DNA of 64,000 nucleotides from Beroe forskalii (Eukaryota > Ctenophora > Nuda > Beroida > Beroidae): the NCBI GenBank assembly GCA_011033025.1, contig WFMF01000442.1, positions 62,001 through 126,000 of the forward strand, in the 5' to 3' direction. Below the pieces are notes generated by a model that made no database searches, had not been told where the DNA came from, and was given only the letters and a program-made list of their open reading frames with translations. This document shows positions 785 through 48,900 of this stretch, one piece after another. The position numbers and the translations under genes were made by a program. How positions within the stretch are numbered: the first letter of the stretch is position 1; each line of letters opens with the position of its first letter.

Positions 785-3700
785 TTTGGGGGGCGGTGGA
801 CGACGGAGGGTCTGACTGACGGCCTCCTCGTTGTGGAGCTGGCTCCTGAACTTTATCAGTTTCTCCTGCATCGTCTTGAGCCGGTCTATCTTCCGCTGTA
901 GGATCACGTCCAGCGCTCGGGCGTAGTCTAGGGGAGGGTGTCAGTTTGAGAAATGAGACTAATTCTGAAATATCTGAGTCGCACGTACATCCATCTATGT
1001 ACGTGGATATACTGTTAAATCAGTATCACATACGTTTACACAGGTTTCGGGAGTTCAAGAAATGGGAATAATTCTGAAATTTCTGAGCCGCGCGGCACCA
1101 TGTATGTGCGTGTTATACTGTTAAATCAGTATCACGTACGTACAAATTGTGATTGCGTGGATATTTCAGAAGGCGTTCTCAGAAATCGTGATATCTCCGA
1201 AATTTAAGAACTATGAGAACATATTGGAGTGTAGGAGGGCCTTTTGGAATAGATTTTTGTAGAATATATCCATTCTCAAAGGATGAGCCAAAGCCATAGC
1301 CAGCTACCAAGTACAGGAATGAAAATATTCCAATTCACTATTTTCTTACAAAATTTTGAGATTTTTCGACTGCTGCTGTCCTACAAAACTGTTATTTTTG
1401 GAAACATAGCCCGAAGCCCTAAGAAATAACATGCTTCCATTTATTATTATTATGCAGCATAATTTACTTTTACTTTTCTACGCACAGTCGCAATTTACAC
1501 GGAGTTTTTACAGAAATGTCACGTTGCATCTGGCTCATGTCCTACGACAGATCAGCTCATTCACCGGGACTAAGAAGTAAAACTTTCTCTTTGTTTCGAT
1601 AAATAATCAGGACCAGAGCAAAAGCTCATGCTGTAGAAATATGTCAATAACTTGTTAATTGGCATGTTATCAAAGTGTTATCGGAATGTGATACATCTAA
1701 TCCATATCGGTACATAAGTATAACTACTAAGGAATGTAACCTATCTCCGAATAAACGTACCCTCAATATCGTAGTCTACATCCTGGTCAACTCTCTGCAG
1801 GATAACTTCCTCCTGCTTCAAATACTCCTTGTTCTCCTACAGGGTTAGGGTTAGAGTTAGGGTAAGGGTTATGGGTAGGTTAGGGTTGAGTAAGGTTATG
1901 AATTTAGGAGTGGTTAATCAGTCTACACTGTGTGTGATACCCCGCGCAACAGAATCAGTTGAATTTACGAATAGCCACGCACAGGTAATCAGTTCACACA
2001 GTACAGTTACAATGAACCGTGAACTACGAACGTAGGTCGTAGGTGCATTGGCTTCGCACTAAAAAATTCACAAGAATTGTCACTCTATACACCCGGCTGA
2101 AGAATGTAAATCATACAATGAACACACTATACCTGTAAACACCCCACTATACACTATACACTATACACTAAACACTATACATTATACACTATACAATGTA
2201 CACTATACCTGTATACACCCCACTCTAAAATGTACAATGTATACATACTATACACACTGTATACATTGCTGGTGCTCCTCTACCAGCAGCTCCTCTGCCT
2301 CCTGTAACATGTCCACACCCCACTATACACTATACACTATACACTATACACTATACACTATACACTATACACTATACACTATACACTATACACTATACCT
2401 GTATACATTGCTGGTGCTCCTCCACCAGTAGCTCCTCTGCCTCCTGTATACACCCCACTATACACTGTACACTATACACTATACACTATACACTATACAC
2501 TATACACTATACACTATACACTATACACTATACACTATACACCATACACTATACCTTATACACTATACAATGTACACTATACCTGTATACATTGCTGGTG
2601 CTCCTCTACCAGCAGCTCCTCTGCCTCCTGTAACATGTCCACAGCCTGGTGGAACTTGTACATCTCCTGACCTCCCTCGTTCTCATCCTCACCTGAAACA
2701 GGGGAATTCTGTGAGTGAGAAGGAACAAGAATTCACCAGTCATCCTCACCTGAGAAAAGGGGATTTGATAGGGATTATCCAGAAAAATAGAGTTCAGGGA
2801 GAAGAGTTTCAATGAATATTCGATCATGAACTACTGAACTAGCTGTAGAGGAGGGTCTCAGTTTACCTCCGACTAATATCACTCTATAAACTCACCCTGG
2901 CTGCGTAGACTCTGGTGCAGGTAAGCTAAGTCGTTGTTATTCTCCAGTGGAGGAGCAGGGCGGGCACCTGGGCCTGGAAGGAAACCTCGATATAAGAAAA
3001 GATTTGGTATGTGGCACGGCAAAATAAACTAAATATTTCTTGTTATTGAAAACAAACCAAATGGAAACAAATAGTGACTTAGTGAGAGAATAGCACAAAT
3101 AAAGTACAATTAATATAGTACAAATAGACACTGCAATGCCCTGCTCACGCACCTAGCTCCTTGACCCTGTCCGCATACCGGAGTGTATTGAGAGTACACT
3201 CCACGCTATTCTGGCCCGGTGCCAGAGTGGCTATCATGCAGGTCCTGGCTTTCTCACCCACAAAGGAGTCTCTGAGCACCTGGGAAGGAAACAACCGGTT
3301 AACAGAACCGAAATACTGGTTAACCGGGCGTTTTCAGCCAACCGAACCGAATAATTGGATTTTGCAATTAAACGTTTAGGGACAAGTTCGGTTAACCGAA
3401 CCGAAATACTGGTTAACCGGGCGTTCTCAGCCAACCGAAACTGCATATTTGGATTTTGCAATTAACCGTTTAGGGAAACGTTCAGTTAATCCGAACAGAA
3501 ACAAAATATTAGTTAATCGGGCGTTTTCAGTCAACCGAAACCGAATATTTGGATTCTGCAATTAACCGTTTAGGGAAACGTTCGGTTAACAGATCCGAAA
3601 CCGAAACACCAGTTAACCAGGCGTTTTGAGTCAACCGTAACCATTACCGAATTGTTTGATTTCACAAACCCTAACCGTAACCGTTTAGGGAAACGCTCGG

Positions 3701-45900: not shown

Positions 45901-48900
45901 TTATCATGTGATTTCCTTCGTTTATGATACCAAATGGACCAATCAGGATGTATTTTAGTTTCCTTGTATCTGACGTTGATAATGTTAGATACAACCATCT
46001 GATTGGTCCATTTGGTATCGCACACGAGAAATCGCGGAATAGGCAATCGAAATCCAAGCAATCTGCCAATTCATAATAATCAAGACCGTAATACTTAACT
46101 TGAAAAGCAACACGACAATTTATCAGCTATTTATAAGTTAAGTTTTTCAGTTCATTGGCCGTAAATTTTCAGTATGTTAGCTGTATATAGGCTGATAGTC
46201 TAATTCATGGCTATACAGTCACAATTCACATTCGTCGTAATAGCAATGGCCGTATGTTGGTCTATAATATGTAAGCCTTACATATTCCAGACAAAAGGAG
46301 AAAAAGCGGTGATGATCCATTAAAAAACCACCAGATCTTCTAGGGATCAGGTTAAGGTTTTGAAGGTAAATAGGCAAACAGGTCGATACAGTCAAATATA
46401 TTATGCTCATTTGAAGTGCAGAAGTGAGTCAAATTTATATAAGGCAGTTTACTTGGAAAGATTCAAACTTTTTTTATCAATAAATTGATCGTACATTGAC
46501 AAGAATTGAATTCAATTTTGTTTACCTGTCAGCATCAGACAAAAAGTCGCAGCGTCATTTAATTGCATTCTCATCTAATTATCCCAATCGGTTCTCTATA
46601 CGAACAAATTAAACCCACTTAGTTTAGCTATAAGTTCTAACCATTCTAGATGCGAATAAGGAAGCCAGTGGTCCACTGATTTTTCATTGATTGTTTTTAC
46701 TTTAATGAATAACATTTCAATATTATAAAAGCAAGCCGTTGTATAATGCGATTAAAAACCCGTTATTAATAGGGTGTTACCAATTAATGCGTTGCCGGAA
46801 AACCCATACGTTATAAATATCATCTCGATAACTGGACAAGGTGTGTATGGAAAAGACACATGGCTCCGTTTCACAATTCGAACAAGCCCTGCCCTTTTCA
46901 GTGCTAGTTCTTCATACTATAATGCCCACCTGAGACTGTTTAGCTGTTAGGCGCTTTGCCAAATTGGTCAACAGTTTACAATTTTTATATGATTTGTCCA
47001 TTTACAGCCCCACGCAGCGACTCTTGAGCTGCCAACCAGGGGCGTCGCAGGATTCAACTTTCACATGATAAACCCCTTCAAAATCTCCAAAAGTCTGTGA
47101 AAAAACCCTGCCCTACGAGCCGCAGTCTACCTTTCTATTATCAGAAATTTTATTATCAGAAATTTTATCTTTATGCCACTTCAAAATTATGGGAATAGTT
47201 ACTGAGGAATAAAGTAACAATGCAATACCCTCTCATTTTGAGACCCTGGTTCCGCCCGAGCCGTGCGAGGACACCGTATAACTAACCTAGCGTCAGCACT
47301 GAGTTTGGCGTCCATATCATGGCACTAATTTGGCGACAGAACTGAGTTTGGCGTCCGTCTTGTACTAACCTGGCGACAGCACTGAGTTTGGCGTCCGTCT
47401 TTGCACTAACCTGGCGTCAGCACTGAGTTTGGCGTCCGTCTGGACACTAACCTGGCGTCAGCACTGAGTTTTGAGTCCGTCTTGACACTAACCTGGCGTA
47501 AGCACTGTGTTTGGCGTCCGTCTTGACACTAACCTGGCGTCAGCACTGAGTTTAGCGTCCGTCTTGAACTAACCTGGCGTCAGCACTGAGTTTGGAGTCC
47601 GTCTTGACAGGAACCTGGCGTCAGCACCGAGTTTGGCGTCCGTCTAGCACCTTCCTAGCGTCTGCACTGAGTTTGGAGTCCGTCTTGACACTAACCTGGC
47701 GTCAGCACTGAGTTTGGAGTCTGTCTTAACACTAACCTGGCGTCGGCACTGAGTTTTGAGTCTGTCTTGACACTAACCTGGCGTCAGCACTGAGTTTAGA
47801 GTCCGTCTTACACTAACCTGGCGTCAGAACTGAGTTTGGCGTCCGTCTTGAAACTAACCTGGCGTCAGCACTGAGTTTGGCGTCCGTCTTGACACTAACC
47901 TGGCGTCAGCACTGAGTTTGGAGTCCGTCTTAACACTAACCTGGTGTCAGCACTGAGTTTAGCGTCCGTCTTGACACTAACCTGGCGTCAGCACTGAGTT
48001 TGGCGTCCGTCTTGAAACTAACCTGGCGTCAGAACTGAGTTTGGCGTCCGTCTTGACACTAACCTGGCGTCAGCACTGAGTTTTGAGCGTCCGTCTTGAC
48101 ACTAACCTGGCGTCAGCGCTGAGTTTGGCGTCCGTCTTGACACTAACCTGGCGTCAGCACTAAGGTTTGGAGTCCGTCTTGACAGGTACGGGTGTCACAG
48201 GAAGGTTGGGCTCGTTGACGAAGTTACAGCTGGTGGTGTGGGTTTGTAGGACGTACTCTCCAGGAACCAGCGTAGCTTCCAGCGACACTCTGTGGGAGAT
48301 GAGGGTTCATTGTCAGGGGATAGAATGGTGAGTTGTTGAGGTCATCCTCATGGTTTAGATTGTTGAGTTGATGACGTCATATTCATGGCTTAGAGTTGCG
48401 ATTAAACCCATATGTGCGCGCAACATATTATGAGTGCACATGGATTGATCAATAAAAACGCGCATAAATACTGTAGCTGTACCTTAACTTTCTCCACAGA
48501 AATTTCTGTAAAAGGTTAATTGGGCGCACTGCAAAATGCGCGTCTTTATCAATCCCTTCATCGATGATATGCACAGTTTGCATGTGCTTATGTCAATCTT
48601 TGAATTGGGATATTAGTATTTTGTGGTGAGCTAATGATTATATTGAAATCGGATTAAAATTATTTATCCCTCCAGAGAAATCCAGATGTGATATTTTGGT
48701 GAGTTTTTCTATTAAAAATTGCCAGGAATAATAAATAACCCCCACAAAATGCTGCAAATTTCATATTTAATTTCAAATATCAGAATATCATTACTCCCGC
48801 TCAGTCGCTCACTTAAAACCATCATATCTTCCAGTATGTGTTCAGAGGACCATTATACTATTAAATTGTGGATCTTTTAAATTTAATGAAGTTAATGGCC

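What the first reader, a model, noticed from the sequence alone, without database searches (positions are those of the whole stretch)
2100..48289. Tandem repeats anchored on 5' splice sites in two neighbouring genes
In the EFCAB7-like gene five of seven visible donors (48147, 39207, 37041, 34108, 32796) and in the kinesin gene two (2582, 5535) are the first unit of a tandem repeat made of exon tail plus GT donor. A sixth EFCAB7 donor (36699) has an array 16 bp away. Unit sizes (7 to 41 bp) and sequences are unrelated, so the position, not the sequence, is what is shared. I recall 'mirage' minisatellites at exon/intron borders in amphioxus; this locus would be a dense example. A tie to intron creation by AGGT duplication, or to transcription/splicing-linked instability, is inference.
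Basis: partly seen in the sequence, partly recalled or inferred. Interest (0 to 1): 0.9.

Follow-up and report, generated by a model that had tools for sequence, protein, structure and literature searches.

The report
Tandem repeats straddling gene splice junctions
In this animal genome, short stretches that straddle the border between an exon and an intron have been copied repeatedly into the intron, at both ends of introns and in several gene families; this resembles 'mirage' repeats already known from amphioxus, and in some genes the spare copies differ from the real exon mostly in ways that would not change the protein.

Summary
The arrays are real. In the EFCAB7-like and kinesin-13 genes, repeats begin at or straddle 5' splice sites 39207, 37041, 34108, 32796, 2582 and (very short) 5535. 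Donor 48147 is not supported: an in-frame TAG precedes it. In 299 kb of other loci of this genome, arrays straddle junctions of dynein, myosin and kinesin genes, at 3' sites at least as often as 5' sites (donors 4 of 94, acceptors 7 of 97). So 5' anchoring fails. Arrays cover about 14% of random stretches. Against a TRF-edge background (2.1% of intronic positions) junctions look enriched; against a laxer one (8.2%) they do not. Intron creation is rejected for four array-bearing introns, whose position and phase are shared with array-free paralogues. Best reading: position-blind minisatellite growth, tolerated at junctions because the outermost copy still splices, as in amphioxus 'mirages'. Possible novelty: intronic copies of the exon part differ from the live exon by 29 synonymous and 17 nonsynonymous distinct changes (73% nonsynonymous expected by chance, p 3e-7). 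That shows recent descent from a live exon edge. Faster exchange between live and spare copies is only hinted at, mainly by two arrays. The organism is unidentified and there is no RNA.

The parts
783..12835 (-). kinesin-13 (KIF2-like) gene, about 16 exons (some by HMM only); stop codon at about 780
   Evidence: HMM exons; joined motor exons match KIF2 2gry E 9.5e-81; stop AAA CGG TAG
32797..50261 (-). EFCAB7-like gene, exons 50261-50170, 48289-48199, 39362-39208, 37240-37042, 36790-36700, 34227-34109, 32904-32797
   Evidence: HMM (39208 border by inference); EF-hand and EF_assoc_2 matches; the name EFCAB7 is recalled
2321..2582 (-). 7-bp array (TATAGTG) starting at the GT of kinesin donor 2582
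   Evidence: TRF
2683..2764 (-). two-copy duplication of kinesin acceptor 2692 with exon head (CTCAG|GTGAGGATGA)
5517..5535 (-). short GTGAACTA repeat starting at the GT of kinesin donor 5535
   Evidence: by eye; not found by TRF nor at the threshold
32694..32814 (-). 24-bp array, 18 exonic bases + GTGAGT, donor 32796
   Evidence: TRF
34067..34110 (-). two-copy duplication GTAAGTTATTGAGAAAA at donor 34108
36443..36681 (-). 15-bp array starting 18 bp inside the intron after donor 36699 (does not include the donor)
   Evidence: TRF
36997..37050 (-). 14-bp array including 9 exonic bases, donor 37041
   Evidence: TRF
39188..39247 (-). 21-bp array; copy 1 in exon, copy 2 carries donor 39207, copy 3 in intron; all three encode MWSVIK
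   Evidence: TRF
47281..48184 (-). 41-bp array x22 beginning 14 bp after the likely donor 48198; claimed donor 48147 lies behind an in-frame TAG
   Evidence: TRF

Best explanation
Short segments are tandemly duplicated at a high rate across the non-coding DNA of this genome. When a duplicated segment straddles a splice junction the gene survives, because the outermost copy (first copy at a 5' site, last copy at a 3' site) keeps the intact exon edge and splice site while the other copies lie in the intron. The result is a 'mirage': an array whose outermost unit is the real junction. The spare copies descend recently from a live exon edge and therefore still look coding. Shown here: the arrays, their presence at both ends of introns, old intron positions, and a synonymous bias of the spare copies. 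Inferred: the duplication rate, which copy splices, and whether spare and live copies go on exchanging sequence.
For: Arrays cover on average 14% of 20 random 10-kb stretches (range 0.8-42%) and 10% of the window. Junction-spanning arrays at acceptors: L048 49 bp, L044 34 bp, L038 37 bp (dynein), L052 56 bp, L051 57/58 bp (kinesin), L032 34 bp (myosin); at donors: L034 37 bp, L026 22 bp (myosin), L035 and L036 86 bp (dynein). Of 19 unit lengths that I listed 3 are multiples of 3, so copies are not simply read as coding. Use of an upstream acceptor copy gives a stop or a frame shift in 12 of 13 real copies in five arrays; the exception is the nearest spare copy of L051. Array-bearing introns share position and phase with array-free paralogue introns. 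End-to-end alignment of spare copies in 15 arrays: 17 nonsynonymous and 29 synonymous distinct codon changes against 73% nonsynonymous expected (p 3e-7); sites differing: codon position 1, 23 of 486; 2, 10 of 478; 3, 46 of 470; intronic 47 of 619.
Against: No RNA, so which copy splices is unproven. Whether junctions are more, equally or less affected than introns depends on the measure: TRF edges 11 of 191 vs 2.1% null (p 0.002; other settings give p 0.015 to 0.053), self-match 10 of 191 vs 8.2% null (p 0.95). The synonymous bias was first seen in L048 and L052; without them it is 17 N to 19 S (p 9e-4 vs 73%, frame randomisation P 0.07), and L032, L044, L009 and the most distal copy of window 32796 look near neutral.
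Confidence: 0.65

Rival explanations
1. Splice junctions, 5' sites in particular, are hot spots for array birth (transcription-, R-loop- or splicing-linked instability).
For: In the window donors exceed acceptors (4 of 23 vs 1 of 22; 6 of 34 vs 1 of 31 predicted junctions at score 14). TRF-edge test: 11 of 191 homology-anchored junctions vs 2.1%.
Against: Acceptors are as affected as donors elsewhere (7 of 97 vs 4 of 94). No excess with the self-match test. Donor-consensus pairs are not over-represented genome-wide.
Confidence: 0.2
2. The arrays are footprints of intron birth by tandem duplication of AG|GT exon segments (Rogers model).
For: Units contain exon sequence and splice sites; the amphioxus globin paper proposes this route (PMC3087553, passages); human repeats at exon-intron boundaries are said to form new introns (PMC2812944, passages); yeast and potato cases are described in PMC4974935 (passages).
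Against: Four array-bearing introns share position and phase with array-free introns of paralogues: dynein L048 and L044 vs L040 and L047, myosin L032 vs L022, kinesin L052 vs L050. The units of the arrays include intronic sequence, so the intron came first.
Confidence: 0.05
3. Spare copies are used as alternative splice sites and are under direct coding selection.
For: Synonymous bias of spare copies; in six arrays the GT or AG columns vary in 1 of 12.
Against: Unit lengths are not multiples of 3 in 16 of 19; inner acceptor copies give stops or frame shifts in 12 of 13 cases.
Confidence: 0.07
4. Chance plus ascertainment: an array-rich genome read by eye at exon borders, with nothing special about junctions.
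For: Array cover 10-14%; random intronic positions lie in a self-match of score 14 or more in 15.6% of 1500 cases; self-match edge null 8.2%. This is compatible with the best explanation on placement.
Against: Units that reproduce 18-76 exonic bases plus the splice site are not arrays that merely abut an exon; TRF-edge test p 0.002.
Confidence: 0.35

Closest known systems
'Mirage' repeats of amphioxus (Adh3, globins BflGb6 and BflGb9, troponin C, PGBD5; passages of PMC3087553 and PMC3902484)
   Same: Tandem copies of a segment spanning an exon-intron boundary; unit sizes overlap (10-160 bp there, 7-86 bp here); both 5' and 3' boundaries; splice signals kept in many copies.
   Different: Here several gene families of a 216-Mb assembly of an unidentified animal; arrays shown to sit on introns shared with array-free paralogues; synonymous bias of spare copies counted. 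Normal splicing and haplotype differences were reported there, not tested here.
[quoted passage not shown] Hellsten et al. 2011 and the potato case as told in PMC4974935, passages)
   Same: Tandem duplication of sequence holding splice signals.
   Different: Here the intron already exists and its edge is multiplied; no new intron shown.
Internal tandem repeats that change human gene structure (PMC2812944, passages)
   Same: Minisatellites of about 30-bp units at exon-intron boundaries.
   Different: There within recent human duplicates and said to make new introns; here spare copies stay in old introns.
Hypervariable minisatellites with allele-to-allele exchange at one end (human loci, recalled)
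   Same: Exchange of that kind is the bolder reading proposed here.
   Different: One array end here is a live exon edge; exchange is not observed.

Membership tests
'Mirage' repeats | Tandem units that contain exon sequence, the splice site and intron sequence | tested here: met
   window 32796, 37041, 39207; L048, L052, L051, L044, L038, L032, L034, L035, L036. Window 2582 and 5535 hold no exonic bases
'Mirage' repeats | Occur at 5' and at 3' boundaries | tested here: met
   donors 4 of 94, acceptors 7 of 97 homology-anchored exons outside the window
'Mirage' repeats | Regular splicing is kept despite the copies | not testable with these tools
   No RNA data; continuous protein across kinesin and myosin junctions is consistent
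'Mirage' repeats | Copy number differs between haplotypes; somatic instability | tested here: inconclusive
   one locus searched, no second haplotype in the assembly; sister dynein genes L035 and L036 differ in copy number
'Mirage' repeats | Host is a cephalochordate | tested here: inconclusive
   Organism not identified; muscle myosin 757 bits to the best striated-muscle entry (scallop, recalled) and 747 to beta-cardiac Myosin-7; no sialyltransferase family match, in a search whose controls did not ring either
Intron gain by tandem duplication | Intron absent from homologues at that position | tested here: not met
   four array-bearing introns share position and phase with array-free paralogue introns; other array-bearing introns not tested
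Intron gain by tandem duplication | Duplicated unit is purely exonic with AG|GT | tested here: not met
   Units of the 13 arrays carry 5-23 bp of intron next to the splice site

The most novel reading that the evidence does not exclude
Splice-junction minisatellites are an interchangeable stock of exon edges: spare copies inside introns keep coding constraint because recombination, within the array or between diverged alleles, keeps drawing them from or promoting them to the live exon position, so introns archive synonymous variants of the neighbouring exon. Arrays L048, L052, L051 and L038 (0 nonsynonymous, 13 synonymous distinct changes) look like this; a single exon lineage shedding copies would give about 57% nonsynonymous.
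Probability: 0.2. Interest if true: 0.8.

Novelty: new member of a known kind. Interest (0 to 1): 0.45.

Why it matters
Splice-junction repeats have been described gene by gene in amphioxus. Here they are found at both ends of introns in three conserved gene families plus the window genes, on introns older than the arrays. That argues against reading them as intron birth and makes a genome-wide test simple. If the synonymous bias of the spare copies proves stronger than recent descent allows, introns would hold copies kept under coding constraint by exchange with an exon, which would mislead exon finders and selection scans. It also asks how the spliceosome picks one of many near-identical sites.

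Tried and rejected
5'-specific anchoring: tested and rejected. Self-match edge test: no junction enrichment, told beside the TRF-edge result. Genome-wide donor-pair pattern test: no enrichment; the listed places are dominated by a few huge arrays such as C77:417548-420317. One search was uninterpretable without single-site counts.

One search (local alignment) gave 8 N / 27 S in 13 arrays but trims unit ends and lost nonsynonymous changes there; the p values built on it (1e-9, 4e-5) are superseded. One search (ungapped search over up to 1500 bp) gave 33 N / 33 S at 68% identity and 103 N / 41 S at 60%, but counts chance matches of 9-12-bp references and copies shifted by indels. One search (end to end, gaps allowed, limited to array extents typed from TRF, copies of at least 70% identity) gave 17 N / 29 S and is the one used: p 3e-7 against 73%, 0.005 against 57%; without L009, L018 and L036: 13 N / 24 S, p 2e-6 and 0.006; without L048 and L052, where I first saw it: 17 N / 19 S, p 9e-4 and 0.15. 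The 57% figure is my own calculation (one exon lineage, neutral spare copies).

Arrays left out of these counts, by my judgement: L012:5111/5354, L018:5133/5211, L014:9534, L008:4944, L005, L006:1455, L004:3019, L016, window 24208 (exons without homology support, several probably coding repeats), and L057:1346, L018:34, L026, L041, L003, window 34108 and 2692 (short exonic part or not examined). They remain in the totals where detected. L009 and L018:2840, kept in the counts, rest on the HMM alone. In one search the reference row of L035 was an intronic copy. Window 782 looked like a donor array but is the kinesin stop codon. The fetched loci overlap in part (L021/L022, L025/L026, L027/L030/L033, L023/L034, L024/L031, L029/L032); junctions were counted once by place.

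Allelic test: one locus searched, no haplotig. Organism: Bugula neritina considered for its assembly size (214 Mb) and set aside on GC (35.26% in PMC7576161, passages; 38-46% in the loci and window here). Literature: searches; papers seen as passages: PMC3087553, PMC3902484, PMC2812944, PMC4974935, PMC7576161, PMC13326412; all others as listings. In these I saw nothing on synonymous bias of intronic copies, which is not proof of absence.
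Full report
WHAT IS THERE. The window lies in a 216-Mb assembly of 1134 contigs. A self-trained exon HMM finds a kinesin-13 gene on the minus strand at 783-12835; its joined motor exons match KIF2 (2gry) at E 9.5e-81. It also finds an EFCAB7-like gene on the minus strand at 32797-50261 with EF-hand and EF_assoc_2 matches (the name is recalled). Reading the sites, repeats begin at or straddle donors 39207, 37041, 34108, 32796, 2582 and, very short, 5535. At 36699 the array starts 18 bp away. 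The claimed donor 48147 follows an in-frame TAG, and the HMM donor 48198 is 14 bp before that array. Acceptor 2692 of the kinesin gene is itself duplicated. At 39207 three copies encode MWSVIK; one lies in the exon, one carries the donor-like site, one is downstream. That 39207 is the exact donor is inferred.

IS IT MORE THAN CHANCE? I fetched 299 kb of the same genome: 20 random stretches plus exons of myosin, dynein and kinesin genes located by Pfam search (total, partly overlapping). Arrays cover on average 14% of the random stretches (range 0.8-42%) and 10% of the window. Homology-anchored exons outside the window give donors 4 of 94 and acceptors 7 of 97 with an array whose outermost unit holds the junction (TRF score 50, at least 4 exonic bases; 9 exons missed by the HMM were judged by eye, 2 donors positive). 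The same criterion is met in 2.1% of 90,670 intronic position-strand tests (p = 0.13, 0.004, both 0.002; uncorrected; the other three settings give 0.015 to 0.053 for both). A laxer self-match criterion is met by 204 of 2500 pseudo-junctions (8.2%), against donors 4 of 94 and acceptors 6 of 97: no excess. In the two window genes that criterion gives donors 4 of 23 and acceptors 1 of 22 (p = 0.11 vs null; Fisher 0.35). Over all predicted junctions at score 14: donors 17 of 253, acceptors 16 of 258; random intronic positions 15.6% of 1500. Genome-wide, tandem pairs of MAGGTRAGT number 948 against 8510 single sites, the reversed control 1304 against 10410: donor consensus is not enriched in tandem pairs. 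So junction-spanning arrays are common and real, but neither confined to 5' sites nor clearly concentrated at junctions.

THE ARRAYS AT OTHER LOCI. At acceptors the last unit is at the junction: dynein L048 (49 bp), L044 (34 bp), L038 (37 bp); kinesin L052 (56 bp), L051 (57/58 bp); myosin L032 (34 bp, 8 copies). At donors the first unit is: myosin L034 (37 bp) and L026 (22 bp), and the sister dynein genes L035 and L036, where 76 exonic plus 10 intronic bases recur, most copies with AAG|GTAAGT.

OLD INTRONS. Dynein introns before C-Y-x-T-L: L048 and L044 have arrays, L040 and L047 do not; all four have the same phase. Myosin intron before F-N-S/T-F-E-Q: L032 has an array, L022 does not. Kinesin intron before L-S-L-V-D-L-A-G: L052 has an array, L050 does not. 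These arrays are secondary; they did not create these introns.

SPARE COPIES LOOK PARTLY CODING. In 15 junction-spanning arrays, copies were aligned end to end with the live unit. Distinct codon changes: 17 nonsynonymous, 29 synonymous. Random change would give about 73% nonsynonymous (p 3e-7); copies born from one exon lineage and then decaying neutrally about 57% by my calculation (p 0.005). Sites differing: codon position 1, 4.7%; 2, 2.1%; 3, 9.8%; intronic 7.6%. Frame randomisation P = 0.016. The bias is uneven: L048, L052, L051 and L038 have 0 and 13, the other arrays 17 and 16. Without L048 and L052, where I first noticed it, 17 and 19 (p 9e-4 vs 73%, 0.15 vs 57%; frame randomisation 0.07). 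An earlier count (8 and 27) trimmed unit ends and overstated the bias; an ungapped count (33 and 33, or 103 and 41 at laxer identity) is swamped by chance and shifted matches. Column by column in six arrays: codon positions 1 and 2 vary in 9 of 197, position 3 in 17 of 96, intronic positions in 10 of 66, the splice dinucleotide in 1 of 12. Direct coding use of inner copies is unlikely: 3 of 19 units are multiples of 3, and inner acceptors lead to stops or frame shifts in 12 of 13 copies.

MECHANISM. Shown: arrays, both sides, old introns, a synonymous bias against random change. Inferred: a high background rate of short tandem duplication; tolerance at junctions because the outermost copy suffices; recent descent of spare copies from a live exon edge. 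Hinted only: continuing exchange between live and spare copies, or capture from diverged alleles, which four arrays suggest and the rest do not need.

COMPARISON. The arrays match the amphioxus 'mirages' in anatomy and in affecting both boundaries (passages of PMC3087553, and PMC3902484, which also says that they do not disturb splicing). Haplotype differences and splicing were not testable here. The host is unidentified, and the assembly is far smaller than I recall for amphioxus. The intron-gain model fails its defining test for four introns. I file this as a new member of a known kind, with the synonymous bias as the part worth following.

Noticed in passing
window 4172-4364 and 4446-4693; 58131-58310 and 58585-58702: Pairs of neighbouring 11-bp arrays whose units are reverse complements or nearly so (GCCAGTATCAC / ACTGGCGTGAT; TGACCCCCTAC / AGGGGGTCAGC), i.e. 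inverted array pairs about 80 and 275 bp apart.
   Followed up: no
window 18471-26986 and 61955-64000: A gene with short exons that look zinc-finger-like by eye, followed by a very long open frame (1351 aa, no Pfam match), occurs twice about 40 kb apart on the same strand.
   Followed up: no
window 742-785: An 11-bp array x4 begins at the stop codon of the kinesin-13 gene (AAA CGG TAG ACA), so an array also starts at a coding end that is not a splice site.
   Followed up: partly
G000:C291:171201-174881: Two kinesin motor exons recur several times, spaced about 800 to 1200 bp, suggesting tandem duplication at the scale of exon pairs.
   Followed up: no
L035, L036 (G000:C441): Sister dynein genes share a distal array copy (AAG to CAG change) but differ in copy number.
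   Followed up: partly
L050 404 and L052 209: Spare copies in L052 hold synonymous states (CTA, GTA, GGA) that the live exon of the array-free paralogue L050 also has, so they may be ancestral or exchanged between paralogues.
   Followed up: partly
window 1841-1898: A telomere-like AGGGTT array ends 5 bp before kinesin acceptor 1836 and could serve as its pyrimidine tract.
   Followed up: no
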